Source of the DNA: Candidatus Sumerlaeota bacterium
Lineage (GTDB): Bacteria; Sumerlaeota; Sumerlaeia; SLMS01
Length of the DNA: 34,559 bases
Direction of reading: 5' to 3'
Assembly: GCA_007133495.1 (NCBI GenBank)
Contig: SLMS01000131.1
Span: forward strand, 1-34,559
The notes beneath the pieces are model-generated. The model searched no databases, was not told the DNA's origin, and was given only the letters and a program-made list of their open reading frames with translations. The position numbers and the translations under genes were made by a program. The stretch's first letter is position 1, and the number at the start of each line of letters is the position of its first letter. Shown one piece after another: positions 54 to 34,559 of the stretch.

Positions 54-1625
54 TTAATCCAGCTCGTACTTCTTCATCTTTCTGTATAGACGCTTCCTGT
101 CTATACCGAGCGCCTTCGCCGCCTCCACCTTCCGCCCCTTCGCCCGCCGCAGCGCCTCCACGATCTGACGCTTCTCCATCTCATCCAGCGTCAGGGGCTT
201 TTCCGGGGCCTTCGGCACGAACGGCTCTGAAAACGACGGTGCGCCCCCGCCGTTCCCGCCCTGCGAGGCGGAGGGTGCCTTTGGTGCAGGCGATTGGCGC
301 GCCGCCGGCGGCAGCGTCTGCCGCGCCGGAACGGGCTTCGCCGCACCCGCATCGTCCTCGTCGAACGGCCGCACCGCCGCCAGCGCCTCTTCCGGCGAAC
401 GGAAGAGCTGCGGCGGCAGGTCCTCCACCGCGATCGTGTCCGAAACGCTCAGCGCAAAAATGCGCTCCACCACGTTCTCCAGCTCGCGTATATTTCCCGG
501 CCATGGATACTGCACCAACATCTCCATCGCCTCGGGCTGTACCGACTTCGCCGCCACGTCGTAATCCTTCGCATACCGCAGTATAAAATGCCCTGCCAGC
601 GGCGGAATATCCTCCTGCCGCTCCCGCAACGGCAGCAGGTGAAGATTCACTACCGAAAGCCTATAAAACAAATCCTGGCGGAAATTCCGCCGGCGCACTT
701 CATATTCGAGGTCCCTGTTCGTCGCGCAGATAAGCCGCAGGTTGATCTTGTGCGCCGCCGTGTCGCCCACCGGAATGACCTCGCGCTCCTGTATCGCACG
801 CAGCAGTTTCACCTGCAAATGAGGCGACATTTCCGATATCTCGTCCAGAAACAGCGTCCCACCTTCCGCCGCCTGGAAAAAACCAACGTGATCGTTCACC
901 GCGCCCGTAAAGGCACCCTTGCGGTGGCCGAAAAGCTGGCTCTCCAGCAGCGTCTCGCTCAGCGCCCCGCAGTTCACCGCAATGAACGGATAGCGCGCGA
1001 AGGGCCCGCTGTCGTGAATCGCCCGCGCGATCAACTCCTTTCCCGTTCCGCTCTCCCCCGTGATCAACACCGTGCTGCGGTTCCGCGCCACCCGGTCCAC
1101 CATCCCCAGCACGTCACGGATATGCGCCGACTCCCCGATGATTTCGTAGTGAGGCTCGCCAGCGCCCAGCCGCGCCTTCAACTGCCTGTTCTCCGACCGC
1201 AGGTCCCGCAATTCGAGAGCCCGTGAAAGCACCAGCAGAATCTCGTCCGGGTTCGCCGGCTTGATCAGGTAATCCACCGCCCCCGTCTTCATCGCATCCA
1301 CCGCCGACTGGATAGACCCATGCCCTGTCAGCACGATCACCGGCATGTCGGGGTATCTTTGCCGCACCCGGTGGAGCAGCCCCATCCCGTCGAGCTTCGG
1401 CATCTTCAGGTCCGTCAGCACCGCATCGATCGGCACCGGCGCCTCGCTTTCCTCCGGCCGGTCCGGATCGGGCATGTTCTCCTGCAGGACCTCCATGCCC
1501 TCCTCACCATCGTGCGCCGTGATCACCTCGTAGCCGTGCCGGCGGAGAATCTTTGCCAGCATCAGCACCAGGTTTTTCTCGTCATCGACGAGCAGAATTC
1601 TTGGAGTCCGTTTTTCGTGAGGCAT
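54..1625 (-). CDS. Sigma-54-dependent response regulator, NtrC family (REC - AAA+ - Fis-type HTH)
   Basis: ILLVDDEKN...DAVLTDLKMPKLDG receiver; GESGTGKELIARAIH Walker A; GAFTGA; LFLDEISEM; YPWPGNIRELENVVER; C-terminal EAAKALGIDRKRLYRKMKKY HTH. Start MPHEKRTP at 1625 preferred over the longer ORF. Confidence 0.95.
   Translation of the reverse strand: MPHEKRTPRILLVDDEKNLVLMLAKILRRHGYEVITAHDGEEGMEVLQENMPDPDRPEESEAPVPIDAVLTDLKMPKLDGMGLLHRVRQRYPDMPVIVLTGHGSIQSAVDAMKTGAVDYLIKPANPDEILLVLSRALELRDLRSENRQLKARLGAGEPHYEIIGESAHIRDVLGMVDRVARNRSTVLITGESGTGKELIARAIHDSGPFARYPFIAVNCGALSETLLESQLFGHRKGAFTGAVNDHVGFFQAAEGGTLFLDEISEMSPHLQVKLLRAIQEREVIPVGDTAAHKINLRLICATNRDLEYEVRRRNFRQDLFYRLSVVNLHLLPLRERQEDIPPLAGHFILRYAKDYDVAAKSVQPEAMEMLVQYPWPGNIRELENVVERIFALSVSDTIAVEDLPPQLFRSPEEALAAVRPFDEDDAGAAKPVPARQTLPPAARQSPAPKAPSASQGGNGGGAPSFSEPFVPKAPEKPLTLDEMEKRQIVEALRRAKGRKVEAAKALGIDRKRLYRKMKKYELD
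84..106. repeat. Inverted pair of the iterated octamer: GTATAGAC-7 nt-GTCTATAC
   Basis: Perfect 8-bp inverted repeat read directly at 84-91 and 99-106, inside the 3' end of the regulator CDS. Confidence 0.85.
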
Positions 1626-1692
1626 GTGAGCTGTCAGTAGCCGATCGTCTAGAGTGCGGGGCAGCCCCCGGCTGCCGCCGTGAGTCCTTCGT

Positions 1693-2194: not shown

Positions 2195-4081
2195 ATGCAC
2201 GGCATCCCGTCCGACCAGCAATTCGAGGAGTTCTTCGCCCGCCACAGTCCCGCCGTCTGGCGGCTCTGCCTGAGCATCCTCCAGTCCGAGGACGACGCCG
2301 CCGACGCGTTCCAGAACGCGTGGGTACGCTTCTTCCGCAAGGCGCGCGGCCGGCCCGAGGCGCTCGCTCACCCCGGTGCCGCGGCGCTCCTGCTCCGCTT
2401 TGCCAGCCGTGAGGCCGGGACGCTCCGGTCCCGCCGCTGGCGCCAAGCGAAGCGGGAACTCCCCGGTGCGCTCCCCACGCTCACCACCCCGGACGGCTCG
2501 CCCGCCGCGGCGCTGGCCGAGCGCGAGGCCGCCGCGAAGGTCCTGCACTGTCTGGACGGCCTGCCCGAGCGCTACGCCCTGCCCATCCGCCTGCACTACC
2601 TGGCCGGGCTCAAGCACCGGGAGATCGCCGAGGTGCTCGGCGTGAGCGTGAACACGGTCTCGACGAGGCTCGCGCGCGGGACGGACCGGCTGCGGACCAG
2701 GCTCCAACGCGCGGGCATCCGCGGGCCGGAGTCGGTGCTTTTGACCGCCGCGGGCCTCCTAGCCGCGAGCGTCCCGCCAGCCGTATCCGCCGCCAAGGTG
2801 AGCACCCTCGCCGCCGCGGCCGGGAGTGGCGCCTTCCTCGCATCCCTTTCAGGAGCCACTGCGATGAAACTCGGACTCGGCGGCGCAGCCGCTGTCACCG
2901 CCGCCGCCATCGGCATTGCCGTCCTCACCCCGGACGAAAACCCCGCCACGGCGGAATCCTCGGGCCCGGAACCGGTGGCGGCCACCCAGCAGGCCGGTTC
3001 CTCTCCTCCCGCTTCCGCCGCATCCGGCAACCTGCCCGGCCGCCTGGAGGCACGCTTCCTCGCCCCGGAGGACACCACACCCGGGGTCACCGCGCGCGAG
3101 CTGCACCAACGCCTCCGCACCGATGGCATGGCCGCCTTCCCCGCTCCCACCGTCGATGATGTGCAGCCCTTTGTCGCGGAGTTCACCGGCAACTGGCCCG
3201 TTCAGGGGCGCCTGGAGGGCTTCGAACCTCTCGGTCTCGAGCACTTTCCCCCATCGCCAGGCTCCATTGAGCGCAGCCAAGCCGCCCCCCACGGCATCGT
3301 TGAGCGTGTCCAGACACAAGTGGACGGCAGCCCCGCAGAAACACGCAGGACCATCCACGGCGCTGTCTCCGGCCGCATGATCCGCGAGTCCGGAACGGTG
3401 ACCCAGACCGTCGAGGTGGACATGCCACATTTGGTCATCATGCCCAACGGCCGGCAACTCATCGGCCGCTGGCGCAATCACGCCTCGGCCGCCATCCCCG
3501 GCGATTCCGCCGCACTCCCCTTCGTCATCGTCGCCGGTGGGGAGGTGTCCCGTGGCATCACCGCGATCGGCGGCGATTTCACTGGCGGAGCCGGTCCCGA
3601 ACCCGCCGCATGGGGAACCGTGTCCGTCTATACAAATGGAGGCACGGTGGGGCCTCTGTCCAGTTTCGAATTCCCGCTCTATGAGGGGATGACTCTCGAC
3701 GGATTCACCGGAAGCCAGCAGCCATTCATCACGGAATTCTACACGCAGGAGGGCGGCGTGCAGCGGCGCCGTTCCATCCAGTCCACCTCAGCCAGCGGTA
3801 TGTCGGTCGCGCTCGAACCGTCCGAAAATGTGGCCGGGTCGTGGGCCCTCCGCGTGGTATTCGACTATACAGACACCAACCCCCGCCCGGGAGGAAGCCC
3901 GCCGGTAGTCCGGCAGCGCGATTCCGTAACCTGGGAGGACACACTGACCATTACCACCGGAAGGCGAACTCTCCGTGCCCGCCCGGGAGATATACGCAGC
4001 GAAGTCGCACGCCCTGGACCCACCCAGCCCCCCGGCTCACCGGAAGAGCGCCACTACGAACTCCGCATCACCGTTGAGTAG
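2195..4081 (+). CDS. ECF-type RNA polymerase sigma factor with hydrophobic segment and long C-terminal extension
   Basis: Region 2 (FEEFFARHSPAVWRLCLSILQSEDDAADAFQNAWVRFFRKA) and region 4 (LPERYALPIRLHYLAGLKHREIAEVLGVSVNTVSTRLARGTDRLRTRL), then hydrophobic GLGGAAAVTAAAIGIAVL and about 380 further residues. Confidence 0.85.
   Translation: MHGIPSDQQFEEFFARHSPAVWRLCLSILQSEDDAADAFQNAWVRFFRKARGRPEALAHPGAAALLLRFASREAGTLRSRRWRQAKRELPGALPTLTTPDGSPAAALAEREAAAKVLHCLDGLPERYALPIRLHYLAGLKHREIAEVLGVSVNTVSTRLARGTDRLRTRLQRAGIRGPESVLLTAAGLLAASVPPAVSAAKVSTLAAAAGSGAFLASLSGATAMKLGLGGAAAVTAAAIGIAVLTPDENPATAESSGPEPVAATQQAGSSPPASAASGNLPGRLEARFLAPEDTTPGVTARELHQRLRTDGMAAFPAPTVDDVQPFVAEFTGNWPVQGRLEGFEPLGLEHFPPSPGSIERSQAAPHGIVERVQTQVDGSPAETRRTIHGAVSGRMIRESGTVTQTVEVDMPHLVIMPNGRQLIGRWRNHASAAIPGDSAALPFVIVAGGEVSRGITAIGGDFTGGAGPEPAAWGTVSVYTNGGTVGPLSSFEFPLYEGMTLDGFTGSQQPFITEFYTQEGGVQRRRSIQSTSASGMSVALEPSENVAGSWALRVVFDYTDTNPRPGGSPPVVRQRDSVTWEDTLTITTGRRTLRARPGDIRSEVARPGPTQPPGSPEERHYELRITVE
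3626..3633. repeat. Iterated octamer copy (GTCTATAC)
   Basis: Exact match; coding phase gtc-tat-ac (V-Y-T). Confidence 0.8.
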
Positions 4082-4098
4082 GGTACTGGGCAGGCAGC

Positions 4099-5136: not shown

Positions 5137-5138
5137 CG

Positions 5139-6836: not shown

Positions 6837-9800
6837 TCAGTGAATCAGCCAAAGATCACTGGGTTCCTCCGGCATCTCCGTACTGCCTGCCACTGTGACG
6901 TCGTCGAGGCGCAGTTTTGCCCTCGGCCCATCGGTAACTCCCACGTGGTAGTACCGCCAAAGAAGCTGGACATACTCCTGTCCGAGCAACTCCTCCGGCA
7001 ATGCAATATCCTCGAAGAACTGTGTGTGGCCATCGTCCTGGCGGATGTACTCAATCGGTAGCTCGTCGTCGTCGAGCACATCTTCAAACGTCGCGTCTAT
7101 ATCAGTGCGGTACTGGAGCCTGATTGCGTAGACGCGGGAGTTCTCCAGCACCGTGCCCGCGAGAAACGAAACCTCGGCTTCAGTGACCCCTCGGGTGTCC
7201 AGAGCCAGCACTGCGCCGCCAAGATCGCGCTCCCGGCCCGTATTAATGAAGGCAATGCCATCGCCATCGAGCCCAGTCAGCCGTGTTCGGCGCGTATTAT
7301 TATACGGGAAACCGATCGTGTCCTCGTTCTCCTCGTGATAGTGGTGGGGGAGCAGGAAATACGCAAAATCAAGCCGTGCGTCCACCGGCGGGTCGGTGAG
7401 GTCCGTCTGGAGGAAAAGCATGCTCTCCGGATAGGAACCCTCCGGCTCGTCCGCACTCCAGGCGTCAAATACGAAATCGCCTGCCGCCAGCTCGTGAGCC
7501 TCTGGATAGACAAGATGGTGGATCATATAATAAATGGGCGGATTCTCCCCGTCGAAGGCCGTAACCCGCACCGACGTCTCACCCCGGTGCTCAGCCGTGA
7601 CAATTACCTGGTCCCCGGAAAGGGAGGCGTCCACAACTCCCGGCCGTGTTGTGTCCACGCCGAAGGAAAGCGGTGCGCCCTCCGGGTCGGAGAATATCCG
7701 GTTGAGGTCGTACTGCCGCACATTGCCTTCGCTGACCCGCTGGCGGGGAAGCGCATCCGCCACATAGGGCGGCGCATTTGTCCCGGGAAGCGGCTCACCT
7801 TCCAGCGTTATATGGTCGAACCGGTTGTTGCCGCTATCGCCACCGTCCCCCTCTACAAACTCGATCCGCACCGTGAAATCCGGGTTGTTTGCAACGCCGG
7901 GGACCTCGGTGAAGTCGTAGGTATAGATCGCTGACGGGGCATTCTCCAGCGTCACAATATCGAACGGCTCGAAGCTGCTCCCGTCCGTCGAGTAGGAAAT
8001 CACCTGGGTTCCGGCCCCGTTTCCGGACCGCCGGCTGTCGTACTTCAGGACAATATTTTCGTACCCGTCCGTCGGAAGGTGGAGGTCCATCACCGCGCCA
8101 ATGGGGTCCTGAACGCGGAGGTGGAGCCCTGGCAGGTCTCCGAACTGTGCATTCTGTCCACGGAAATCATGGCGGTCGTCCAGCCGGTACTCCGTGTCCG
8201 GTCCCTCATCAATGGTGAGAGAAGCATCGCTCACGGAGTACGCCGGCGCCAGAATGTCCTCCGTATTCTCGAAATTCCAGTAATGCAAAAGGACCGCAGG
8301 TGCGTTTTTCTCGAAATTCGCCACCAGCGACAGGTCTCCCTGCGGGACGATCTCAGCCTCTGCGGAGGACTTTGTCTCAATTCCATCCCACCCGGTAAAA
8401 GTGTAACCCGGCGCGGCCTCCGCGCGGAGGGGGAGCGGAATGCCGCGGAAGTAGGTCCCCTCCCAGGGCGCCTCTGCTCCTGCAATGCTGATGTGGCCCG
8501 CCTCAACGCTACCGCCCTCGGGGTCGTTGATGTCTATGGAAAGGTTGGCGGTACCGTCCAGCGAGAAAAAATCCACAGCATGGTCCCGGAACGCGTCCGG
8601 TCTGTTCCGGGCATAATCCCGTACCCTCTCGGCCTCGTTCTCCCAGAAGGTGACAGTTGTAGGCCAGAACCATCGCTGAGTGTGCTCCTCCATGCCGTGG
8701 GCGATCTCGTTGTGCAGCAAGTCGATGGCAGCAACCACCGAGTCCGCACTGAACGTGGTATTCAGGTGCTCCGCGAGACGAACCAGAAACTCATTGCGGA
8801 ACTCGTCACTTTCGAGCAGCGCATCAAGCTTCAACGAATAGTGGTGATTATATCTCGTATCCGCGGCGGGTTCAAGGTCCGGATAGTCCCATGGTCTGTA
8901 ATCGCCAAGGCCAAGCGTAAAATCAAGGTCATAGACGATCCAGCGCCAGCGGCCATCATAGGGCGTCAGGTGATCAGGCACCCCAGCCGCCGGGTCGCGG
9001 CGGTACCGCCAAAGATTTATATTATCGATCGGCCAGTCGAGGTTCCCCAGAACCGTGTGGGTAATCGTATAGTCAATGAAGTTGGTCACGTCCATATAAT
9101 CGTGAACGGCCTTGTACGCTTCCGGGTCGCTGAGGTCCTCCTGCAGCACAGCCTCCAGCATTTGGCTGTAGTGCTCCAGGTCCCCTTCCTTCACCTCAGG
9201 AGCAGGCCATTTTCCGTCAAGCAGGTCAAGGTTGTACGGGTCCAGGTCATGCTTGTGGCCGAGGAAATATCGATCGATCCTGTCCCGGAAATGATGGATG
9301 CCCCAGTACTCGCCGCTCACGAAAACGACAGCCGGCCGGGAATACTGAAAATCGAGATCTGTCGTGTCCCGGAGCAGGGCCCACGAAAGTGAGTCCCGGT
9401 AAAGCAGATAGGCCCAATCCGGCGCCCCTCCTGCCCGCAGCAAAATGCGCTTATACTGCTCCACATGGCTGTCCGGGAAGAACTGATAATTGAAGAACTC
9501 CTCGCCGTAGGACGGTCTGGCATATAGCCGGAATGTCTTGCGCGGGAGGGCGCGGCTGAAGTTGCCGTGCACTCGTATGCCCACGTCCTGGACGAGACTC
9601 CGGGCCCCGCCCTCTTCAAAAAGCTCGAAACTACCCGGGCGCTCCCATTCGCGTCCCCGCTGCAGAAAATTGCCGGTCAGGTTCGGAAACTCCTCCTCCG
9701 GGTCATAGTGCACTCCCGGCACATAGATACCGATGTAGTGATCGAAGAGATTGTCGTAGTCCGTCACAAGTGAAACGACCGGCATCTGATACCGATCGTG

Positions 9801-12118: not shown

Positions 12119-13312
12119 TCATTGCAAGGACGAATGCCCCCCTGCCCCGATCACTTCGCGCAGCAACCCCTCCAGGATCGCATCGCTCAGCAGCCAGCCC
12201 TCCCGCGTCAGCCGCACCCCCTCCGGCCCCGCCTCCATCCAGGCCGCCGATTCCGGCAGGTTCGCCCCGTGCCACCGCCGGCACGCTTCCACCAACTCAG
12301 GAGCCTCCCCGCGCCCCAGCCCCTCAGTCCGCCGCAGCCCCGTAAACAAACGCTCCCACGCCGCCTCCTCCGGCCCGGGCCGCTCCGCAGGCTCCCGCGG
12401 AACCCGCCCCGCCGCCAGCGCCGCCGCCCAGCCCTCCAGGTCCTCCGGGTTCCGCCAGCGCTCCGGCCCCATGCGCGAGTGAGCCCCCGGCCCCACGCCC
12501 AGCACGTCCCGCCCCGTCCAGTACCGGGCGTTGTGCCGCGAGCGGAACCCGGGGCGCGCGAAATTGCTGATCTCGTAGTGCTCGAAGCCCTCGCCCTCCA
12601 GGAAATCCGCCCCCCGCAGGTACATCTCCGCCTGAAGCTCGTCGCCCAGCTCCGCCAGCCGGCCCTCCCGCTTCCATGCCTCGAAAGGAGTCCCCTCGTG
12701 CCACGTCAGCCCGTAGAAACTCACGTGGTCCGGCTCCAGCGCCACCGCCCGCCGCAGATTCTCCATCCACCGCTCCATCGTCTGCCCCGGCAGCGCAAAC
12801 ATCAGGTCCAGCGAAACATTCCCGAACCCCGCCCGCCGGGAGCGCCGCACCGCCTCCTCGATCGTCTCCGGCCCGTGCAGCCGTTCGAGCAGCCCAAGCT
12901 CCTCCGGGTGGAACGACTGTGCGCCGATGCTCAGCCGTGTGAATCCCGCTGCGTGCCACTGCCGCGCCCGGTTCTCGGTCAGGTTCTCCGGATTCGCCTC
13001 GAGCGTGAACTCCCGCCCCCCGCACTCCACGAAGAGCCCCTTCCAATGCGCCAGCAGTTCCCCCACCGCCTCCGGCACCAGCGTACTCGGCGTCCCCCCG
13101 CCAAAATACACCGTCTCCAGCGGACGTTCCGCCATTTCGGGATACACGCCGAGCAGCAGGTCCACCTCGCGCCGTAGCTGCCCCGGAAAGTCCAGCCGCG
13201 CCCGCGCCGGCCGCTCCCGAAGCTCCATCTTGTAGAAATCGCAGTATGGGCAGGCATGCTTGCAGAACGGCACATGGCCGTATATACCGAGGCTTTCCCG
13301 CGCCCCCGCCAT
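12119..13312 (-). CDS. hemW: HemW-like / coproporphyrinogen III oxidase-like radical SAM protein
   Basis: IYGHVPFCKHACPYCDFYK (CxxxCxxC), TVYFGGGTPSTL, LEANPENL, RLSIGAQSFHPEELGLLERLH, LMFALPGQTMERWMENLRRAVAL. Confidence 0.88.
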   Translation of the reverse strand: MAGARESLGIYGHVPFCKHACPYCDFYKMELRERPARARLDFPGQLRREVDLLLGVYPEMAERPLETVYFGGGTPSTLVPEAVGELLAHWKGLFVECGGREFTLEANPENLTENRARQWHAAGFTRLSIGAQSFHPEELGLLERLHGPETIEEAVRRSRRAGFGNVSLDLMFALPGQTMERWMENLRRAVALEPDHVSFYGLTWHEGTPFEAWKREGRLAELGDELQAEMYLRGADFLEGEGFEHYEISNFARPGFRSRHNARYWTGRDVLGVGPGAHSRMGPERWRNPEDLEGWAAALAAGRVPREPAERPGPEEAAWERLFTGLRRTEGLGRGEAPELVEACRRWHGANLPESAAWMEAGPEGVRLTREGWLLSDAILEGLLREVIGAGGHSSLQ

Positions 13313-13316: not shown

Positions 13317-16250
13317 CTACTGGTACTCCGTCTCGTCATCGGGTTCCATTGGCGGAGGGGGCGGAGGCACGTGATGCGGCTCCGGCGCCTCGATGCCCTC
13401 CGGGAGCGCCGGCGGTCCGGGGCGTGCGGTTTCCGGCAGCATCTCCTCCGGGTCTTCAGGCCAGGCGTCTATACGGGCGATCATGTCGCTCAGCCACCCG
13501 AAACGCTCCGGATCGATCTCCATCGCCGTCTCGTACCCCATCCTTGTGGCTTCGAGGAACCCTCCGGCGCCCTCCTCGTCGAGCGGCAGCGTCTCGAAAA
13601 GGCGCGCATGGATGCCGCCGAACCGGTACCACGCCTCCGCGTCATGAGGGGCGCTCTGCACCGCAAGCCCGTGCAGTTCTGAGGCGCGCGAATAGTTTGC
13701 CTGTGACTCCGCCAACGCCGCCATGTAATACAGAATCTCGTGCCGGCCCGGTTGGCGGTGTTCGATCGCCTCCTCCAGCACCTCCAGTGCCCCCGCCCAG
13801 TCGTTCTCCCAGCGGTGCACCTGCGAAAGGAGGTAGCTCGCGTGCAGGTTCGCCGGGTTGCGCTCAAGCTCCTCCGCAACGACCTCGCGGACGAAATCGC
13901 CCTCGCCGAGCGCGTGAAAATGGTACGCAATTTCCCGTGCCGCAGGGTCGGAAACCCATCGCCGCAGGCCCTCGCGCGCCGCAGCGTCCAGCCGCTCCCG
14001 GGTCTCCTCCGCGCCCTCCTCCGGCAGCATCCAGTGCTGCTGCACCAGCAGCGCGTATAGATACGGCATCCTCGGGTTCCGCTCGATCGTGCGCAGTATC
14101 CGCTCCACCCGCTTCTCCGCCGGAACACCGGCCGGCACGTCAGCCCGCCGGTAGAAATGATTATAGACATCCGTCGTCTTCAGAAACGCCCCTGCGTGCT
14201 CGTACTCCTCCTCCAGCGCCGGGTGCTCGTACATCAGCGCGGACACCTCCGGGTACGCCCGCCCGGGCGCCGCCGGGTTGCCGTCCTCGTGCAGCACGAA
14301 AAGCACGATATACTCCGGCCGGCGCTGCTCCATCAGGACCGCCGCGCTCCGCTCGGCAAACGCCTTATGGTACTCCCGCGCGGCCCGACGCCGCAACTCC
14401 CGCCGGCGCGGCCGGTTCGGCGGCTCCGGCTCCTCCGCCACCAGCCGCTCGTAATGCTCGTGTTCAGTCGGCAGCCGGCCCCGCGCGCTCGGAGCGTGGC
14501 CCAGCATCGGGTCCGTCAGTCCGTCCGCATCGTATAGACTGAGGTGTGTGGCAAACCAGAGTGGCTGCCCGATGTCTCCCGTGTATATCCAGCTATCATC
14601 CCGCGTGTTCAACAACAGGTGGTCGGACACCGTCTCCAGCGGAGCCAGAAAGCCGCGTCCATACGATTCCGCCACCGCCTGCGGATGCCACCAGCCCCCC
14701 GGCCGCTCAGTCACAAAAGCGTGTCCCGGCCCGAACACCCAGGCCGCCTGCGTGCGCCAGTGCTCCCGCGCCGCTCCCGCAACCAGCCACAGCGCCACCG
14801 CGAACGTCCCCACGGCTATCCACCCGCCCCACGGCCCCGGCTCGCGCCAGAGCCGCACCAGCGGCCCCACGCTTCCAAAACCAGCCGCCACCGCCACACC
14901 GATAAACGGCAGCACCACCTGGAAAAAACGGAAACTCGGCATCCAGTCACCGTTCACGTGCCACACGTAATACACGTTCGCCAGCCATGGCAGGAAAACC
15001 AGCCCCGCCACCGCCTCCCACCGCGGCAGCCCCACCGGCGGCCCGCGCCAAAGCAGCGACGCACCGGCCCCCAACACCAGCAGCGACCCACCCAGCACCC
15101 ACAGGTTCACCCACAGCAGCGACGGCCTCCCCGTCCCCGGCAGATTCCCCGTCACCCGGTCCGCCAGCTTCCCCACCGTGCTGCCCGCATCATCCGGCAG
15201 CCAACCCCGCACCATCGGCTTCTCCTCCGCCACCGGCTGCGCAATATAGAACCTCCAGAACTGCTCCATCGCCCGCGGCCGATGCTCCGTCTGCACGTGG
15301 CGCTGCTTGGCGTAATACGTGTTCGGCAGCACATCCCCGAAATACATCCACCGCCAACCCCAGAAAAGTGCCGTTGGAATCAGCACGATCAAGAGCGCCC
15401 TCCGGAAACGTCCCCATGGCCAGCGTCCCCTCCCCAGAAGCCAGAGCCCGTATAGACACAGCGGCAGCAGATAGAACAGTGAGTCCACCCGCGCCAGCAC
15501 CGCACCAACCGCCAGCCAGGGCGAGACCTGCCAGCGCCGCGCGTCCCGCCGCTCCACCTCGAACCGCGCATAGCACGCCGTCAGCAGCGCCACCTGAAGC
15601 TGTGTCTCCATCCCCATCAGCGCCCAGTGCGAAAACCACGTGTTCACCGCCAGCAGCCCCGGCGCCAGCAGGTTGAACAGATCGTTCCTCCACCGTACCG
15701 CTGCCGCCAGACCCCACGCCGCCGCCATCGCTGCCACCGCGCTCAACAGCCCCATCCATTTCGCCACGAACAGCAAATCCCAGCCCAGCCAGTGCGGCAC
15801 CACCAGCAGGACCGCCCAAAGGAAGTTCGTGAATCCCTCCACCCGCGGGCCCTCCGGGTTGAACACCCAGCCGTGACCCTGCGCAAACATGTCCACGAAC
15901 CGGAACGTGATGTACGAATCGTCGATCACCACCTCCCAGTGAACCGAGGCCTGCCACACGAAGGCTCCCACCAACGCCGCGAAAAGCAGGAGCTGCAAAA
16001 CGTTCAGCGGCCGCGCCAGCAGCCCCGCCGTACCGCGCAGCGCCTCACGCCCCGAGTAGAACGGCGGCAGGGGGGCGCCATGGTAGTTCCGCAGCCGCCT
16101 CCACCGCCCGCGCAACCGCTCCGCCATGCCGGCCGGAAGCACCGCCTCGGCCGTCCGCCGCAGCCAGCCCCGCTTCCGGGAGCCCGGTCGTGCCGCCGCG
16201 TCCCCGGCGGGTGGTTGGTTGGGGCGGGGCGCCTGATCCATGCTCTGCAT
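13317..16250 (-). CDS. Polytopic GT-C-like (AftB-like) glycosyltransferase with C-terminal TPR-like region
   Basis: IDDSYITFRFVDMFAQGHGWVFNPEGPRVEGFTNFLWA is typical of ArnT/AftB-like GT-C proteins; many TM segments; C-terminal helical repeats (ALEVLEEAIEHRQPGRHEILYYMAALAESQANYSRASELHGLAVQSAPHDAEAWYRFGGIHARL). Confidence 0.75.
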   Translation of the reverse strand: MQSMDQAPRPNQPPAGDAAARPGSRKRGWLRRTAEAVLPAGMAERLRGRWRRLRNYHGAPLPPFYSGREALRGTAGLLARPLNVLQLLLFAALVGAFVWQASVHWEVVIDDSYITFRFVDMFAQGHGWVFNPEGPRVEGFTNFLWAVLLVVPHWLGWDLLFVAKWMGLLSAVAAMAAAWGLAAAVRWRNDLFNLLAPGLLAVNTWFSHWALMGMETQLQVALLTACYARFEVERRDARRWQVSPWLAVGAVLARVDSLFYLLPLCLYGLWLLGRGRWPWGRFRRALLIVLIPTALFWGWRWMYFGDVLPNTYYAKQRHVQTEHRPRAMEQFWRFYIAQPVAEEKPMVRGWLPDDAGSTVGKLADRVTGNLPGTGRPSLLWVNLWVLGGSLLVLGAGASLLWRGPPVGLPRWEAVAGLVFLPWLANVYYVWHVNGDWMPSFRFFQVVLPFIGVAVAAGFGSVGPLVRLWREPGPWGGWIAVGTFAVALWLVAGAAREHWRTQAAWVFGPGHAFVTERPGGWWHPQAVAESYGRGFLAPLETVSDHLLLNTRDDSWIYTGDIGQPLWFATHLSLYDADGLTDPMLGHAPSARGRLPTEHEHYERLVAEEPEPPNRPRRRELRRRAAREYHKAFAERSAAVLMEQRRPEYIVLFVLHEDGNPAAPGRAYPEVSALMYEHPALEEEYEHAGAFLKTTDVYNHFYRRADVPAGVPAEKRVERILRTIERNPRMPYLYALLVQQHWMLPEEGAEETRERLDAAAREGLRRWVSDPAAREIAYHFHALGEGDFVREVVAEELERNPANLHASYLLSQVHRWENDWAGALEVLEEAIEHRQPGRHEILYYMAALAESQANYSRASELHGLAVQSAPHDAEAWYRFGGIHARLFETLPLDEEGAGGFLEATRMGYETAMEIDPERFGWLSDMIARIDAWPEDPEEMLPETARPGPPALPEGIEAPEPHHVPPPPPPMEPDDETEYQ
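13467..13474. repeat. Iterated octamer copy (GTCTATAC)
   Basis: Exact match; minus-strand coding phase cgt-ata-gac (R-I-D). Confidence 0.8.
14532..14539. repeat. Iterated octamer copy (GTATAGAC)
   Basis: Exact match; minus-strand coding phase agt-cta-tac (S-L-Y). Confidence 0.8.
15450..15457. repeat. Iterated octamer copy (GTATAGAC)
   Basis: Exact match; minus-strand coding phase tgt-cta-tac (C-L-Y). Confidence 0.8.
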
Positions 16251-18401: not shown

Positions 18402-19620
18402 CGAACAACCGTCCCTCCTCAAGGCAGTCGCAAAGTTCTCCATACACGGCCCGCAGCCGCCTCCCGTCCGGCGAGCGGCCCAACCGGCGCAGCAACCGCG
18501 CAGCCAGCGTCCCCCGCGCACCCAGCGTCCGCACGAACGCATTCTCCTGCCCCGTGCGCGAGAACAGGTCCTGCCACAACTCACCGCACGAGCACCCCGG
18601 CCGCAATCCGCTTCCGAGCAAAGCGAGGTACTCCCCGTCAGTCACCCGCGCCTCCCCGCCACAGCCGATCGCCTCTATCAGCAAATCCCGCAGCGGCTCC
18701 ACCGCCGCCCCGGCCTGATCCGCCCACGGGCTCCATCGCTCCTCCACAAGCCCCCGCACCACCGCAACCATCGCCTCCACAACGGCAAGGTCCGCCGCGG
18801 GGCACTCCTGTATATCCAACAGCCGCACCTCGATTGAACCGCGCCCAAAACGTGCGATCGCACCGCGGCTGTTCACGAACTCCTCCCCCACAAGTACCCC
18901 CTCCGGGTCGAGCGGCCCCAGCGCCTCCCAGATCGGCCCGTTGATGACCCGCCCATAGTCCTTCTCCGTATAGACAGGCTCCGGAATCACGTCCCCCGTG
19001 ATGACCGGCACCCGCCGCTGGTTGTGGCGGTAGTAGTCCAGCCGCGTGTCCACAAGCCCCGTCACCCGCCCTCCCGCCACAGGGGAGCTTCCCGCCAGCG
19101 CCGGCAGCAAAGGCAGCACCAGCCGCACCGCCGCGTGCAGCCGGCCGAACTCCGCATCACCGCAGAACGGCAGGTTCACATGCGTGCTCTGCACGTTCGA
19201 CCACCCATGACCCTGGCAGCCAAAAATCCAGTCGTACGCCTCGTACACCGCATTGTATTCGTGCGGCCAAAGGCGCGTCTCCCGCACCGGGTCCATCCAC
19301 GGATGCATGGCCCCCGGCATCAGCCGGCATCCCATTGGCCCCAGCAGCCGGTTCGCCTCCCGCACGCACTTCTGGAAGCCTTCCGCCAACCCGCCGAGCC
19401 CTGCCGCAGGCCCGTTCGTCTTGAACTCCACAACGTGCAGCACCAGCTCGTTCGACCAGGCGAACTCCCCCCGCTCGAACTCGGAGACCGTCCGCCCGCA
19501 CGCAGCCTCGATCAGCCGGTCCGTCAGCGGTGCCACGTTCAGCGAATCCGCCTCTACAATTGCATACTCCAATTCCACCCCGAAGCCCTGGAAAAGGTGC
19601 AGCCGCGCCACCGTGCTCAC
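18388..19620 (-). CDS. Glutamate-cysteine ligase family 2 (GCS2) carboxylate-amine ligase
   Basis: FGVELEYAIVEADSLNVAP (GxExE), WSNELVLHVVEFKTNGP, GCRLMPGAMHPWMDP, GHGWSNVQSTHVNLPF, RGAIARFGRGSIEVRLLDIQECP. Confidence 0.85.
   Translation of the reverse strand: MSTVARLHLFQGFGVELEYAIVEADSLNVAPLTDRLIEAACGRTVSEFERGEFAWSNELVLHVVEFKTNGPAAGLGGLAEGFQKCVREANRLLGPMGCRLMPGAMHPWMDPVRETRLWPHEYNAVYEAYDWIFGCQGHGWSNVQSTHVNLPFCGDAEFGRLHAAVRLVLPLLPALAGSSPVAGGRVTGLVDTRLDYYRHNQRRVPVITGDVIPEPVYTEKDYGRVINGPIWEALGPLDPEGVLVGEEFVNSRGAIARFGRGSIEVRLLDIQECPAADLAVVEAMVAVVRGLVEERWSPWADQAGAAVEPLRDLLIEAIGCGGEARVTDGEYLALLGSGLRPGCSCGELWQDLFSRTGQENAFVRTLGARGTLAARLLRRLGRSPDGRRLRAVYGELCDCLEEGRLFDGVS
18968..18975. repeat. Iterated octamer copy (GTATAGAC)
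   Basis: Exact match; minus-strand coding phase gtc-tat-acg (V-Y-T). Confidence 0.8.
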
Positions 19621-25395: not shown

Positions 25396-28300
25396 ATGCC
25401 CTCCAAGGGTCGCCCACCTTCCTGGCCATTTGCGGCACTGCTCGTTCTCGGGCTCGTAGTGCTGGTGGGATGGCTGTTTCTCAATGGCACCCCGGCCCCC
25501 GAAGAGGACACCCCGGAGACCACTGCGGAGCTTCCCCGGCAGCCCGAACGCGGGCCCCTCATCCCCGAGATGCGAATGGGCATGGACCGGTCGCCCGCCG
25601 CACAGGCCTATCGCGAGGAACTCCGCCAGCAGCGCGAAGCCGAAGCACCCCCGCCCGAACCCGAAGAAGAACCCGAAGAGGGCGAATACCCCCCGACCGA
25701 GGAATACACCCCCCCCGAGCCCATCGAAATCGCCCTTGAGATGGAGCCCGGCGAGCTTATCGGCTGGGTCAACGACGAGCACGGCGCACCCCTCCAGGAC
25801 GTCAGAATCGCCCTCAAGTACGAAGAAGCCGTCGAGGACGGTGTCGAGCCCCCCACGCCCGAAACACGGTCCACCGAAAACGGCCTCTTCACCGTCGAGG
25901 AAATCCCCCCCGGCCCCTGGACCGTCACCGCACGCAAGGACAACTACGCCAAGGTCGCCCAGACCGCCGTCCAGATACCCTCCGGCTCGCAGGCAGGTCC
26001 CATCACCCTGCGCATGGAGCCTGAACTCGTCCTCAAAGGGACCGTCCGCGCGCGGGACGAAGTGCTCCCCGGCGCACAGGTCAGCGTCTTTCGCGACCTG
26101 CTGACGATAAACAGCCGCGGCGAAGTCTCCCGCGTCCGCGTGGACTACGGCGGCACGTCCACCGACGGCGAAGGCGCCTTCGAAATACGCAGGCTCCCCG
26201 AAGCTGCCCTCACCCTGCGCGTCCGCTCTCCGGGCTACGCACGCCTCCAGGAGCGCATCCCCATGCGCCCGGACATGTCCGCCCTGCAGCTCACCCTCCG
26301 CCCCGAAGCCACTCTCGGTGGAACCGTGCGCGGCTCCCTCGGCCAAGCCGTCGAAGGCGCCGAACTCACTCTCCGCCAGCCCGACGTCGGCGGCGAGTCC
26401 GGCGAAGTCGCCAAGACAACAAGCGGCGAGAACGGCACCTTCCTCTTCAGGGAACTCCCCAGCGGCCGCGACTACCATCTGCACGCCAAAGCCGAGAACT
26501 ACGCTCCCGCCGGGCCCATCGAAGTCTCCAGCGGCACCAGCACCAATGTCATTAACCTCGACTCCGGCGGCATCATCACCGGCCGCGTCGCCAACTTCGA
26601 CACCGGCGCCCCCATGGCCTCCATCGGCGTCGTCGCCATCTCCGCAAACGAAGACCGCCGGCGCACCGCCCTCTGGACGAAGACAAACAGCCGCGGCGAA
26701 TACCGCATTACCCGCCTCCCCGCCGGCGACTACAACGTCGCCATCGTCAATGACAGCCTCACCTCCGAACCCAAGTCCGGCGTTCAGGTCGATCACAACT
26801 CCACCACAGAAGGCATCGACTTCTCCATCTACCCCGGCCTTCAGCTAAGGGGATACGTCGTTGACGGCGAGACAGGTGATCCCCTCCAGGACGCCCGCGT
26901 CACCGTCAAGAGCCTCGTCGGGCCCGAACTGCTCACCGCAAAGGAAACCACCACCTTCACCGAAGGCTCGGGCATCTTCCGCTTCCCGAACATGCCCCAG
27001 GGGCTCTACACCTTCGAAGCCAGCCTCGACGGCTACATGCGCGGCGCCGGTGAGGAAGGCTCCGTCCGCGTCGAAGCACTCCGCGGCACCGACCCCGAAC
27101 CCGTTGACATCAAACTCTATCGCGGCGGCCGCATCGAAGGCTACGTCAACAGCGCGGGGGGCAACCCCATCCCCAATGCCACCGTCCAGCTCTTCCGCGC
27201 TGGGGGGTCTCCCGGCCGCATCCGCGAACGGGACTTCTTCACAAGCACCGACAGTGGCGGGCACTTCGAAATGGAAGGCATCCCCATCCACGACGAGGTC
27301 CACCTGCATGTCACCGCATGGGCCGAAGGCCACACAAAGGCCCGCAGCGAACGCGTCATCCTAAACCGCGACCAGAGCAGCCGCACCGTCGAACTCGTCC
27401 TCGGTGCGGGCCAGACGCTGCAGGCCACCGTCAGGTCCTCAACCGGCGAAGGCCTCTCCGATGCCGACGTCCGCCTCAGTCACTCCGACTTCAGCGACCC
27501 GGACCCTTCTACCTGGCGCCAGCGCGAAAGCGAAGACGGCCGATACAGCTTCGAAAACATCCCCTTCGGCCGCGTCCGCGTAAACGCAAGCCGCGACGGA
27601 TATCTTCCCGCCGGTGGCAACGTCAACGTGGAGTCGCGCGGCATCGCCGAGATCGAACTCACCCTCGACCCCGCGCAACGCATCACCGGCAGGGTTTACG
27701 ACGACCAACTGAACACCCTCCGCTCCGGCCGCGTGGACGCACGCGCAGAACGCGGGGCACGGGGCTCAGGCCGCTCAAACATCGACTCCGAGGGCCGCTT
27801 CGATATCGACACCATCGGCGAAGGCACCTTCCTCCTCGAAGTCAACACCGACATCTCCACCTCCACCGGCAACCGCCGCTTCACCTGGGGCTTTCCCGGC
27901 AACGAACCCAACATGGGCCTCTCCGACGTCATCCTCGTCGTGCCCGCCGGCGGCGGCCTCGAAGGAAAGGTCTTCCTCCCCGACTCCGAAGGCCCGCCCG
28001 CGCGCTTCTCCATCCGCGTGCGCGGCAGCTATACTGATGACGCAGGCCGCAACCGCAGCATCAACGAAAGCCACAACTTCAGCGGCACTGACCGTTGGCG
28101 CTTCGAAAAGCTCCCGCCAGGCGAGTACAACGTCACCGCAAGCGCCCCCAACTACCTCCCCGTCACCGTCGGCCCCTTCGAAGTGGGCTCCGACGGCGTC
28201 TATACTGCTGGCACCATCTCCCTCCATCCGGGCGGCGCCGTCCGCTTCCGTGCCGTGCACTCCCGGACCCAGGAGGCCATCGGAGGCGTCCTCGGCCGCC

Positions 28301-29320: not shown

Positions 29321-31099
29321 TCAGTACAGTGCTGGAATCTCGTCACCCGGCACGGCATTCACCAGCCGCGCCGTGTTGTGCGCGCGCCGGATTGCCTCTG
29401 CATTCTCCTCCGTATTACGCACCCACACCTGCCAGCCCGCCCCCAGCGGATCGTGCGGCAATTCCGGCCACGCGGCTCCAAGGACCCAATCATCCCCGCC
29501 CGCCCGCCGAAGCGCCTGCGCCAGCCGTTGCCCGCCCTGCGTGATGATCCACTGAACCTCGTACTCGTCCAATACTTCCCGCCAATTGTTGTACAGCACC
29601 CGCCCCTCATCGTCCCGAAACGGAAACTCCGCCGCCGTCACGACGTAATTTTCCAGCCGGAAGAACTCCCCTCCGAAAATATCGAAACGCGAGTCACTGA
29701 AAACCAGATTCCGCTCCGGTGACAGGCGCCAGATCAAATATCCCGCATAGCGATTCTCGTTGAACATGTTCCCCGGCAGCTCCGCCAGCTCCGCAAGGTC
29801 CGCCACTTGCGCCGGAAAGCGCTCCCGTATATACGCCCGTCCATCCAGGTACTGCAGGTTCCTTCCTGCGTAGCTCGCCTGCGTCAGCGGACTCAGCCAC
29901 TGCCCGCCCTCCCGCGGGTTCACCGACACCCAGCCCGCCAGATAGACAGCCATCACCGCCACACCCACCGAAGGTGCCGCCCGCCGCCATATCATCCACC
30001 CCGCGTCCGGCAAGTTCCATTCCGCCAGCGAACGCTCCGCCCGCCGCACCGCCTCCCCCAGCACACGCGCCGTCAGCGGCACCATCATGATCGAAAACAG
30101 AGAAAGGTGCCGCACATGCTGGATCGCCTGATGCAGGAAAAACAGATAAATCGCCAGCTCCCAAAACCGCACCCGGAAACCCCGCAGCAGAAACGCCAAC
30201 GCCAACGTCCCTAGCACTGCCAACTGGAAATCGATCACGAAGTAGAAATCCGGCGACGCCAGCTCCCCGATCGCCCGCACCAACTCCGTATCCGTCAGCA
30301 CCCGCGCCGGAAGCTCGTATAGACGCCAACCATACGGATTCACCAGCGTCGCCACAAGCGCCGCCGGCAGCAACAACGCCAGCATCCGCGCCGGCACCAC
30401 CTGCGGCAGCCTGGCCAGCGGAACCGCCGGCAGCCGGTGCCGCACAGACTGGAAGCCATGGTCCGCCGCGAAGAAACCGAGAATCACCCCCGCCGCAAGC
30501 CAGCCTCCGTGCAGATTCGTCCACAGCGCAATCACCGGCGGCAGCGCCCAGAGCCACGCCCGCCGCAGCCAGCCCTCCGTCACCCCAACCAGCAGCAACA
30601 ACTGGCCCGCCAGCAGCAGATTGCTCACCACCGGTGGCCGCACATAGAACATACGCCGGCCGATGGCTATACACAGCACCGCCACAAGGAGCGCAATCCA
30701 CACACGCCCCGATATACGGTATGCCAGCAGATAGACAAGCCCCACCGTCAGCGCAATCAGCACGCCGTTGAACAGGATGGCGCCCCGCCAGCCGCCCAGG
30801 CCGCTCGCCTCGCCCGCACGCCAGGCAAGATAGTAGCCCGCCTGCGCCAGCCACTCGTGATTGTGCCACTCGTGGTCCTGCGCCGTATGGCTGAAGACGT
30901 CGTGTTCCGGAAGACCGTTCTGGACGATATACTGGCCCGTCTTTACATGCCACCAGCAATCGTTGTCCGATCGGATCGGCACCACCGCGATGTGCAACGC
31001 ATAGGCAAAGAGGAACAGCACCGCCAGCGCATGCGCCAGCCCCAACGGAAGAGCGCTTCCGCCCCGCTCACCTGCGGGTTCCCCCTCACTCCTCGTCAT
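29321..31099 (-). CDS. Polytopic membrane protein, glycosyltransferase-like
   Basis: Many TM segments; VPIRSDNDCWWHVKTGQYIVQNGLPEHDVFSHTAQDHEWHNHEWLAQ loop; C-terminal soluble domain. Start MTRSEGEP at 31099 overlaps the upstream gene's stop. Confidence 0.75.
   Translation of the reverse strand: MTRSEGEPAGERGGSALPLGLAHALAVLFLFAYALHIAVVPIRSDNDCWWHVKTGQYIVQNGLPEHDVFSHTAQDHEWHNHEWLAQAGYYLAWRAGEASGLGGWRGAILFNGVLIALTVGLVYLLAYRISGRVWIALLVAVLCIAIGRRMFYVRPPVVSNLLLAGQLLLLVGVTEGWLRRAWLWALPPVIALWTNLHGGWLAAGVILGFFAADHGFQSVRHRLPAVPLARLPQVVPARMLALLLPAALVATLVNPYGWRLYELPARVLTDTELVRAIGELASPDFYFVIDFQLAVLGTLALAFLLRGFRVRFWELAIYLFFLHQAIQHVRHLSLFSIMMVPLTARVLGEAVRRAERSLAEWNLPDAGWMIWRRAAPSVGVAVMAVYLAGWVSVNPREGGQWLSPLTQASYAGRNLQYLDGRAYIRERFPAQVADLAELAELPGNMFNENRYAGYLIWRLSPERNLVFSDSRFDIFGGEFFRLENYVVTAAEFPFRDDEGRVLYNNWREVLDEYEVQWIITQGGQRLAQALRRAGGDDWVLGAAWPELPHDPLGAGWQVWVRNTEENAEAIRRAHNTARLVNAVPGDEIPALY
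30317..30324. repeat. Iterated octamer copy (GTATAGAC)
   Basis: Exact match; minus-strand coding phase cgt-cta-tac (R-L-Y). Confidence 0.8.
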
Positions 31100-31505: not shown

Positions 31506-31553
31506 GGCCTGCCACTCCCGGCAACGATCATTGTCCTGCCGCTTACAACAGAA

Positions 31554-31580: not shown

Positions 31581-31616
31581 TCTCATTTGCGGCTTTTGAT
31601 TGGCGGCAAGGCCCTC

Positions 31617-34559
31617 TTACCGAGGTTCCTCTTCTCCCGGAGGGCTTTGGACCGTGTGCTGCAGCCGCTCCTTCTGCTTCGGGTCGCCGTGGCAGTCCTT
31701 GTACTTCTTGCCGCTGCCGCACGGGCACGGGTCGTTCCGGCCCACTTTCGGCGTCTCCCGCCGGTACGTGCCCAGCCCCGTCCGAGGCCTTTGCGGGCGC
31801 TTCTCCTGCTGTCCCGCCTTCGCCTGCTGGGCCGCCGCCTGCGCCTCGGCGGGGGAGAGAGCCGAGGCCTTCTGCGTCACCATCCGCTGCACCCGCTGAC
31901 GCTGCCGCGCCTCCTCCTCGGACACCGGCTGCGCCCGGAAGAACGTCTGGAACACGTTTTTGTTCACCCGCAGCATGAAGTCCTCGAACGCCGCCGTCGC
32001 GTCCCGCGTGAACTCCACCAGCGGGTCCTTCTGCGCGTAGGACCGCAGCCCAATGCCCTCGCGCAGCTCGTCGATCGCCAGAAGGTGATCCTGCCAATCC
32101 GTATCGATCATCTGCAGCCCGATGTAACGGCCGAACGGCACCGCAATATCCCCAAGGCTCGAAATCTTCTCGTCGTAGGCGTTCACGATATGCTCCATCG
32201 CCGCGTCGTGCAGCTCCTCGTAATCGCCCCAGCTCTTTCCGCGCAGCGGATCGACCGATTCCGTCACGATCGTGGACTCGATCCAGTCCAGCCAGCCGTC
32301 TATATCGGCGTCCCCCATGTTGGACTTCTCGCCGAAATACGCCGTGAACTCCGCATCGATCGCGTCCTCGAAAATACCAAGGTAGATCGGCCGGAGGTCC
32401 TCCTCCAGCAGGATGTCCCGCCGCAGCCCGTACACCTGCAGCCGCTGGCGGTTCATCACGTTGTCGAACTGCAGCGTCCGCTGCCGGCGCTCGTGGTTGA
32501 TCATCTCCACCTTCTTTTGCGCCTTCGTGATCGACCGCGTCACCATCCGGTTCTCGATAGCCTCGCCTTCCTTCATCCCCAGCCGTTCCAGCCAGACCGA
32601 TATACGGTCCGACCCGAACCACAGCATCAGGTTGTCCTCCAGCGAGACGAAAAACCGCGACGTCCCCGGGTCGCCCTGCCGGCCCGAACGGCCGCGGAGC
32701 TGTCTGTCTATACGCCGCGCCTCGTGCCGTTCCGTACCCACAATCTGCAGGCCGCCCGGCCATTCCTCGCCCGACTCGGGGTCCGTATGTGTCTCCGCCA
32801 CGCCCGGCCCGAGCCGGATGTCCGTGCCGCGCCCCGCCATGTTGGTGGCGATCGTGATCGCTCCGGGCCGGCCGGCCTCGGCCACGATCTGCGCCTCCTG
32901 CAGGTGGTTCTTCGCGTTCAGCACGTTGTGATGCAGCTTGCGCGAAGTGAACATCTTGCTCAGCTTCTCCGAGTCCAGCACGTTCGTCGTACCCACAAGG
33001 ATCGGCAGGTTCATCTTGTGCAGCCGTTCCACCTCCTCCAGCACCGCCGCGTACTTCTCCCGCTTCGTCCGGAACACCACGTCATCCATGTCCACCCGGA
33101 TCATCGGCTTGTTGGTGGGGATCGTCACGACGTCCATCTTGTACGTCGCGTGGAACTCGGCCGCCTCCGTCTCCGCCGTGCCCGTCATGCCGGACAGCAC
33201 CTTGTACATACGGAAGTAGTTCTGGATCGTGATCGTCGCCAGCGTCTGCGTCTCCGACTCGATCTTCACCCCTTCCTTCGCCTCCACCGCCTGGTGCAGC
33301 CCGTCGCTCCAGCGCCGGCCCGTCATTTTCCGGCCGGTGTTCTCGTCCACGATCACCACCTTGTTGTCCTCCACGACGTAATCCACGTCGCGGACCTTCA
33401 ACACGTAGGCGTGCAGCAACTGGCTGATCGTGTGCAGCTCCTCCGCCTTTTTGTCATGGGCGGCACGGGCCTCCTTCTTCTTCTCCTCCTTGTCCTCGTC
33501 CGTCAGTTCCTCGTCCGATTCTATACGCGCGAACTCGTCCACCACGTCGCTCAGGACGAAGTACTCCGGGTTCTCCGGCGAGAGCTCATTGCGCCCCTTC
33601 TCCGTCAGCTCGATCGAGCGGTTCTTCTCGTCCACAATAAAGTAAAGATCGCGCTCGATCTCCGGCATCCGCTTCTCGCGGATCAGCTCCATCTCCACCC
33701 GGTCCTGCATCCGCGCCCACGAAGGCTCCTGCCGCAGCTTCATGTACCGCTTGTGTTTTGGCAGGCCCTTGTAGCACTGCAGCAGCCGCACGCCTGCCTC
33801 GAATGCCTCGTCATTCGTCATCTCTTCCTTTTCCAGCAACTCCTCCGCTTCCTTCGCCAGCCGGCTCACCACCATGTTCTGCTTCGCCGTAAGGTCCCGG
33901 ATACTTGGCAGAATGCGGTCATACTGGTCGATGGACCGGTCAACGGGGCCCGAGATGATCAGCGGAGTCCGCGCCTCGTCGATCAGCACCGAGTCCACCT
34001 CGTCCACGATGCAGAAGTACGGCTCGCGCTGCGAGAGCTGGTTGCGGTGCCGTGCCATGTTGTCGCGCAGATAATCGAAACCGAACTCGTTCACCGTACC
34101 GTAGCTCACATCGCTAAGGTACATCGCCCGCCGCTCCGGCGTATGCGGCTGCGTCTTGTCCAGGCAGCCCACCGTCATCCCCAGGAAGCTGAACAGTGGC
34201 TCGTTCCACTCCGAGTCGCGCCGCGCAAGGTAATCGTTCACCGTCACAAGGTGCGAACCCCGGCAGAGCAGCGCGTGCAGATAAAGGGGCATGATCGCCG
34301 TCAGCGTCTTCCCCTCGCCCGTCGCCATCTCGGAGATGTGCCCCTCCGCCAGTGAGATCGCCCCCATAAGCTGCACGTCGAAGGGGACCGCGATCCATTC
34401 CATTTCCTGCTCCGCCACGACCCACTTCTTCCCCACGTGGCGCCGGCACACCTCCTTCATCGCCGCAAACGCGTCCGGCAGCAGGTCCATCAACTCGTAC
34501 TTCTTCTCCTCCGGCTTGATCTTCTCCCGAAGCTCCGCCCAGCGCGCCTCCGTCCACGG
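31617..34559 (-). CDS. secA: Preprotein translocase subunit SecA (5' end beyond window)
   Basis: [101 protein letters not shown]-terminal [22 protein letters not shown]. Frame stays open to base 34559. Confidence 0.97.
32706..32713. repeat. Iterated octamer copy (GTCTATAC)
   Basis: Exact match; minus-strand coding phase cgt-ata-gac (R-I-D) in secA. Confidence 0.8.

What the first reader, a model, noticed from the sequence alone, without database searches (positions are those of the whole stretch)
84..32713. Dispersed iterated octamer GTATAGAC/GTCTATAC embedded in unrelated genes
Seen directly: 10 exact copies (84, 99, 3626, 13467, 14532, 15450, 18968, 28198, 30317, 32706), 5 per orientation, plus many one-mismatch copies (e.g. 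5380, 7096, 7920, 11548, 14055, 14161, 17000, 21358, 21605, 28374, 28808, 29023, 32299, 33517). Assuming roughly 63% GC, chance expectation is below one exact copy over both strands. Copies occupy three coding phases (xgt-cta-tac L-Y, xgt-ata-gac I-D, gtc-tat-ac V-Y-T) and use CTA, ATA and TAT, codons that should be disfavoured in a GC-rich genome. They sit in genes as different as secA, a GT-C protein, a GCS2 ligase and a sigma factor, so selection looks DNA-level rather than protein-level. Known analogues are HIP1 in cyanobacteria and DNA uptake sequences in Neisseria and Pasteurellaceae. Balanced orientation argues against a strand-polar KOPS-like signal. Function is inference.
Basis: partly seen in the sequence, partly recalled or inferred. 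Interest (0 to 1): 0.85.

Follow-up and report, generated by a model that had tools for sequence, protein, structure and literature searches.

The report
Thousand-copy DNA signature in Sumerlaeota genomes
A ten-letter DNA word is written about a thousand times through the genes of one family of uncultured soda-lake bacteria, by choosing unusual synonymous codons, and it is kept in place as if a protein reads it; its job is unknown, but the best guess is a 'this is my own DNA' tag of the kind some competent bacteria use.

Summary
Confirmed. All ten GTATAGAC copies are present (chance 0.14), and the draft genome (a Candidatus Sumerlaeota MAG, 3.73 Mb) holds 930 copies against 28 for the reversed control word. 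The signal is YGTATAGACR: two-fold-symmetric arms (YGT...ACR) around an obligatorily asymmetric centre (ATAG). It is a DNA-level feature. Synonymous shuffling gives 5 copies in coding DNA against 83 observed. In motif context Ile, Leu and Tyr use ATA 23/23, CTA 24/28 and TAT 28/28. Sites are conserved between species more often than other octamers of equal composition (8/17 against 17%), while their flanks diverge.

Among 386 genomes it is enriched only in one family (6 of 7 genomes), not in its sister family. It is absent from three stretches of a relative, two of them looking like acquired defence or transposon islands. Orientation is balanced, so Chi- or KOPS-like polarity is unlikely. None of three DNA-methyltransferase families tested is shared by the motif-bearing genomes, which counts against the HIP1-methylation model. 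ComEC is universal here; a ComEA-type HhH protein was not found in the one motif-free family member. The best reading is a self-recognition signal of DNA-uptake type; a HIP-like or architectural binding site remains possible. Function is inferred, not shown.

The parts
84..91 (+). exact copy; in the C-terminal Fis-type HTH of a sigma-54 response regulator (54-1625 -), codons read R-L-Y; YGTATAGACR at 83-92
   Evidence: kept exactly in G003, lost in G001, G002 and G006
99..106 (-). exact copy, inverted and 15 bp from the first, same gene, codons read G-I-D
   Evidence: kept exactly in G001, lost in G003
3626..3633 (-). exact copy in a 628-aa protein with an ECF sigma-70-like N-terminus (2195-4081 +), codons V-Y-T
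13467..13474 (-). exact copy in a 977-aa protein without Pfam hit (13317-16250 -), codons R-I-D
   Evidence: conserved exactly in G001
14532..14539 (+). exact copy in the same 977-aa gene, Leu-Tyr codons
   Evidence: one mismatch in G001
15450..15457 (+). exact copy in the same 977-aa gene, Leu-Tyr codons
   Evidence: conserved exactly in G001
18968..18975 (+). exact copy in a GCS2-type carboxylate-amine ligase (18388-19620 -), codons V-Y-T
   Evidence: conserved exactly in G001 and G003
28198..28205 (-). exact copy in a carboxypeptidase-regulatory-domain repeat protein (25459-29307 +), codons V-Y-T
30317..30324 (+). exact copy in a 574-aa protein without family hit (29321-31045 -), codons R-L-Y
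32706..32713 (-). exact copy in secA (31617-34559 -), codons of R-I-D in [12 protein letters not shown]; the aligned G001 and G003 sequences differ by one base, a synonymous change of the Ile codon
5255..5262 (.). fully palindromic variant GTATATAC (also at 13280-13287 and 29827-29834)
   Evidence: occurs genome-wide but is far rarer than the asymmetric form
7921..7928 (+). example of the outer-position variant class GTATAGAT / ATATAGAC (also 14055, 21358, 21605, 28372, 28808; 7095, 11546, 17001, 29024, 32298)
   Evidence: these variants are enriched in G000

Best explanation
YGTATAGACR is a dispersed DNA recognition signal (930 octamer copies in the 3.73-Mb draft, 671 with both flanks) that a sequence-specific DNA-binding protein of one Sumerlaeota family reads as a mark of self DNA. 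The most likely use is as a DNA-uptake signal in natural transformation: a surface or pilus-borne receptor binds the word, DNA from the own family enters through ComEA/ComEC, and repeated uptake and recombination of word-bearing fragments spreads and repairs copies throughout the vertically inherited genome, in both orientations and in any codon phase that tolerates it. Shown here: genome-wide enrichment, DNA-level maintenance, conservation with turnover, family restriction, absence from some acquired-looking regions, lack of polarity, and competence-type proteins encoded. Inferred: that a protein reads it, that uptake is the process, and the drive that keeps copies exact.
For: 930 copies against 28 control. 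Enriched in 6 of 7 family genomes (247-1078 copies) and in no other family among 386 genomes to a comparable degree. 83 in-gene copies against 5 after synonymous shuffling. Codon choice in motif context ATA 23/23, CTA 24/28, TAT 28/28 against genome shares of 9%, 1.5% and 28%. Copies are kept exactly in the sister species at 8/17 against 17% for equal-composition octamers (Fisher p 0.004), and in another genus at 3/8 against 11.5% (p 0.06). Around the eight conserved sites the next 10 bases are only 66% identical, yet Y/R flanks tend to stay Y/R when the base changes. In G003, 62 exact copies stand against about 15 excess one-mismatch copies, so copies are kept exact, as expected of a recognised word. 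Flank preference differs by genus (TGTATAGACA / CTGTATAGACAG in G002 and G003), like a dialect. Three G003 stretches totalling 54.7 kb have no copy; two of them carry a type III R-M operon with a DrmD-like helicase, or an MTase with a transposase. ComEC is in every genome. HhH-domain proteins of about 180-250 aa occur in all six motif-bearing genomes; the motif-free G004 shows the domain only in Tex and one weak hit.
Against: ComEC and ComEA-like proteins also occur in the motif-free sister family, so competence genes do not predict the motif. G004 is only about 80% complete, so its missing ComEA may be a gap. Known uptake sequences are not two-fold symmetric (own knowledge) and run to thousands per genome (PMC3630211); this one is less dense. 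Inverted pairs at close range are rare, one or two per genome sampled. No receptor was identified and nothing was measured.
Confidence: 0.4

Rival explanations
1. HIP1-like iterated palindrome: an orphan DNA methyltransferase modifies the word and methylation-linked repair or recombination creates and keeps copies.
For: Intragenic, orientation-neutral, quasi-palindromic, clade-restricted and gained or lost between relatives, like HIP1 and alternate HIPs (PMC4390886).
Against: C5 methylases (PF00145) were not found in G001, G002, G003 and G006. The one vertically kept N6/N4 methylase is shared by G000, G001 and the motif-free sister family but has no close relative among those read from G002, G003 and G005. 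Dam-type (PF02086) was not found in G000, G001 and G005. HIPs are mostly GC-rich at about 1000-2000 per Mb (PMC4390886); this word has an AT-rich core at about 60-290 per Mb. Type I, III and IIG methylases were not surveyed family-wide.
Confidence: 0.2
2. Binding site of a chromosome-architecture or global regulatory protein, read as a dimer (symmetric arms YGT...ACR) with a directional centre.
For: Tolerance in G000 is roughly mirrored between outer positions 0/7 and 1/6 while the central ATAG is strict, as for a dimer. Half-sites are not independent: one GTA and one GTC half in 97 of 111 copies in G000 and 67 of 70 in G003. Near-random spacing in G000.
Against: No known sequence-specific nucleoid or regulatory protein has about 1000 near-exact sites mostly inside coding regions (own knowledge). 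No consistent intergenic preference: 14/97 in G000 (p 0.13), and fewer than expected in G003.
Confidence: 0.25
3. Polar signal such as Chi or KOPS.
For: Density is similar to Chi in E. coli (own knowledge), and the centre is asymmetric.
Against: Neighbouring copies share orientation no more than chance: 35 same and 41 opposite in G000; 47 and 42 along 1.2 Mb of G002, with 15 + and 22 - on a 403-kb contig. The bias in G003 (42 same, 14 opposite) goes with within-gene clusters and the stop codon in one phase.
Confidence: 0.04
4. By-product of codon-pair bias, protein motifs or avoidance of restriction-type words.
For: G000 avoids GTMKAC words, which partly forces GTC-TAT over GTC-TAC (71/76 outside the motif); G001 avoids RTCGAY, which raises ATAGAC.
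Against: G003 has the strictest motif and avoids neither GTCTAC (48/52) nor GTCGAC (116/110). Several codon phases and intergenic copies show the same word. GTATCGAC is not avoided in G000 (4/5.3), yet ATA is used 23/23.
Confidence: 0.03

Closest known systems
DNA uptake sequences of Neisseriaceae (DUS) and Pasteurellaceae (USS)
   Same: Short word of about 10-12 bp, hundreds to thousands of near-exact copies in both orientations, clade-specific with genus-level variants, absent from some acquired-looking islands, with ComEC/ComEA-type genes present.
   Different: Two-fold-symmetric arms, lower density, mostly inside coding sequence; receptor and uptake function unknown; different phylum.
HIP1 (GCGATCGC) and alternate HIPs of cyanobacteria
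   Same: Iterated quasi-palindrome dispersed in unrelated genes, orientation-neutral, gained or lost between relatives.
   Different: Not a perfect palindrome (the asymmetric centre is required), AT-rich core in a GC-rich genome, several-fold lower density, no shared methyltransferase in the three families tested.
Chi / KOPS
   Same: Octamer-scale word, comparable copy number to Chi.
   Different: No strand polarity; symmetric arms.

Membership tests
DNA uptake sequence (DUS/USS) | Genome-wide over-representation of one exact word in both orientations | tested here: met
DNA uptake sequence (DUS/USS) | Word accumulates in the core genome and is scarce in acquired DNA | tested here: inconclusive
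   Three site-free G003 stretches, two with R-M, helicase or transposase genes; few regions, chosen post hoc
DNA uptake sequence (DUS/USS) | Transformation machinery encoded | tested here: inconclusive
   ComEC in all 13 genomes, HhH proteins of ComEA size in all six motif-bearing genomes and not found in G004; both also present in motif-free f2; pili and DprA not searched
DNA uptake sequence (DUS/USS) | Word raises uptake or transformation through a specific receptor | not testable with these tools
   needs a culture or purified receptor
HIP1-like iterated palindrome | Highly iterated perfect palindrome | tested here: not met
   Asymmetric form 97 against 14 symmetric in G000, 67 against 3 in G003; 55 and 35 asymmetric expected if the halves were independent
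HIP1-like iterated palindrome | Cognate DNA methyltransferase present wherever the word is frequent | tested here: inconclusive
   No common PF00145, PF01555 or PF02086 enzyme found across motif-bearing genomes; other MTase families not surveyed, MAGs 75-91% complete
Chi / KOPS | Strand polarity relative to replication | tested here: not met
   Local orientation runs only, no closed genome:

The most novel reading that the evidence does not exclude
An independently evolved self-DNA recognition signal in an uncultured phylum (Sumerlaeota), outside the Neisseriaceae and Pasteurellaceae, read by a new receptor that recognises an asymmetric dyad, with gain, dialect drift and loss visible inside a single family.
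Probability: 0.4. Interest if true: 0.85.

Novelty: new variant of a known kind. Interest (0 to 1): 0.68.

Why it matters
Short words maintained about a thousand-fold in a genome are known from few lineages, and the reason for HIP1 is still debated. A new, independent case with close relatives in different states (strict in G003, softer in G000, fewer exact copies in G001, absent in G004 and the sister family) makes the questions of how such words arise, what keeps them and what removes them directly testable. If it is an uptake signal, it would point to sequence-specific natural transformation in a phylum with no cultured genetics and could help deliver DNA to these bacteria.

Tried and rejected
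Literature search for the word itself returned papers that, by their titles, are unrelated, and no held paper joins Sumerlaeota with natural transformation. EM motif refinement converged cleanly only for G003 (G000 gave a softer, broader motif); in G001 and G002 it drifted to codon periodicity, so exact-word and one-mismatch counts were used there. Transcription-terminator role rejected: close inverted pairs are one or two per genome sampled. Insertion of a mini-element rejected: most non-conserved sites align without gaps. A matching dialect in the sister family was looked for and not found. The ComEC tree did not resolve whether G004 lost the word or branched first.
Full report
Observation. 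The ten octamers are present as listed, five on each strand (0.14 expected), and 42 copies occur when one mismatch is allowed against 6.6 expected. The window is contig C88 of a 3.73-Mb, 344-contig draft genome. Its SecA is 89% identical to that of a Candidatus Sumerlaeota MAG (isolate CSSed165cm_452), so the genome belongs to that phylum. The draft genome has 489 forward and 441 reverse copies; the same word read backwards has 13 and 15.

The motif. In 335 kb of the own genome the octamer occurs 97 times against 1.3 expected from an order-2 Markov model and 7.0 from order 3, and it tops the 8-mer list. A context logo shows clear information only at one more base on each side: Y before (83/97) and R after (88/97), little beyond. 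In the relative G003 the preference extends to CTGTATAGACAG. The arms are two-fold symmetric, but the centre must be asymmetric: one GTA half and one GTC half in 97 of 111 copies (55 expected if the halves were independent), and 67 of 70 in G003.

One-mismatch spectrum. In G003 there are 62 exact copies (YGTATAGACR) and only about 15 one-mismatch copies above expectation. The ratio of excess near-copies to exact copies is 0.24 in G003, 0.93 in G002, 1.31 in G000 and 2.92 in G001. In G000 the tolerated changes sit mainly at mirrored outer positions (0/7 and 1/6), while changes at the central ATAG are rare apart from GTATATAC. Random decay would not give that pattern; a recognition profile would. 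G001 also avoids RTCGAY, which inflates ATAGAC-containing words there, so its high ratio is only partly erosion.

DNA level, not protein level. Shuffling synonymous codons within genes gives 5.0 +/- 2.0 copies. Where neighbouring bases allow the motif, the codon is nearly fixed: Ile = ATA 23/23 (genome share 8.9%), Leu = CTA 24/28 (1.5%), Tyr = TAT 28/28 (28%); in G003 5/7, 19/22 and 36/37. Part of the Tyr effect in G000 comes from avoidance of GTCTAC, but G003 shows no such avoidance and has the stricter motif. Intergenic copies exist at comparable density in G000. The excess of GTCTATAC on the coding strand follows largely from the stop codon in one of the six placements.

Conservation. In 73.6 kb aligned with G001 (78% identity), 8 of 17 copies are exactly kept, against 17% of 1149 same-composition octamers (p 0.004). 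In 26 kb aligned with G003 (72%), 3 of 8 are kept against 11.5% (p 0.06). Around the eight conserved sites the next ten bases are only 66% identical, below the average, and motif-type Y and R flanks tend to stay Y and R even when the base changes. The window pair at 84/99 illustrates the turnover: G001 keeps only the second, G003 only the first, G002 and G006 neither. In SecA, G001 and G003 differ from the site by one base, in the Ile codon.

Distribution. Of 386 genomes, only this family (f1) is strongly enriched: G000, G001, G002, G003, G005 and G006; G004 and the members of sister family f2 are at or near background. The ComEC tree supports f1 as a group with G004 unresolved inside it. In G003 three sampled stretches (54.7 kb) have no copy where about 15 are expected. 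One carries a type III R-M operon with a DrmD-like helicase, one a type II methylase and a transposase, and the third ordinary metabolic genes. This fits slow accumulation in vertically inherited DNA, but the regions were picked after seeing the counts.

Polarity and spacing. Orientation of neighbours is random in G000 (35 same, 41 opposite) and along 1.2 Mb of G002 (47 and 42). Spacing is compatible with random in G000 and G002, with some excess of close pairs in G002; G003 is clustered.

Candidate partners. No C5, N6/N4 (PF01555) or Dam-type methyltransferase found is shared by the motif-bearing genomes; the one vertically conserved N6/N4 enzyme tracks G000, G001 and the motif-free f2. ComEC is universal here. 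HhH proteins of about 180-250 aa occur in all motif-bearing genomes, and similar ones in f2; the two f2 members read in full have a hydrophobic N-terminal stretch and tandem HhH domains, as in ComEA. In G004 the domain is found only in Tex and one weak hit. This is consistent with, but far from proof of, an uptake system; G004 is about 80% complete.

Mechanism. The established part is a clade-specific, maintained DNA word. Inferred: a protein reads it. Uptake is favoured (0.40) because of exactness, dialect-like drift, absence from some acquired-looking DNA, competence genes and lack of a shared methylase. An architectural or regulatory dimer (0.25) and a HIP-like methylation or repair system (0.20) remain open. 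Polar signals and codon by-products are disfavoured by direct tests.

Limits. The statement that uptake specificity is known from Pasteurellaceae and Neisseriaceae follows the abstracts of PMC1939737 and PMC7811141; HIP properties are from PMC4390886.

Noticed in passing
own genome, 335 kb sampled (window and L008-L027): Strong avoidance of hexamers typical of restriction sites in coding DNA: CAGCTG 4/138, GAGCTC 31/186, GGATCC 8/112, AGATCC 23/168, and GTMKAC words (GTCGAC 11/135, GTAGAC 7/73, GTATAC 3/26). The sister species G001 instead avoids RTCGAY (ATCGAC 5/132, GTCGAC 1/105, ATCGAT 0/27).
   Followed up: partly
L039 (G003 contig C4, 1-14687): Island without motif copies carrying a type III R-M pair and a DrmD-like SNF2 helicase, plus two neighbouring proteins (572 and 450 aa) with no PADLOC hit.
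   Followed up: no
L157:15155-15182 (G002) and window 84-106: Rare back-to-back inverted motif pairs (CCTGTCTATACAATGTATAGACAGG in G002) that could form hairpins.
   Followed up: partly
window 6837-10619 (-) and 13317-16250 (-): Large proteins (1260 and 977 aa): no NCBIfam hit for either, and no Pfam hit for the 977-aa one (the 1260-aa one was not run against Pfam).
   Followed up: no
window 2195-4081 (+): ECF sigma-like domain at the N-terminus of a 628-aa protein, an unusually long sigma fusion.
   Followed up: no
L012:17600-19700 with G001 contigs C54, C167, C240, C241: A dispersed repetitive family with many partial DNA matches in the sister genome.
   Followed up: no
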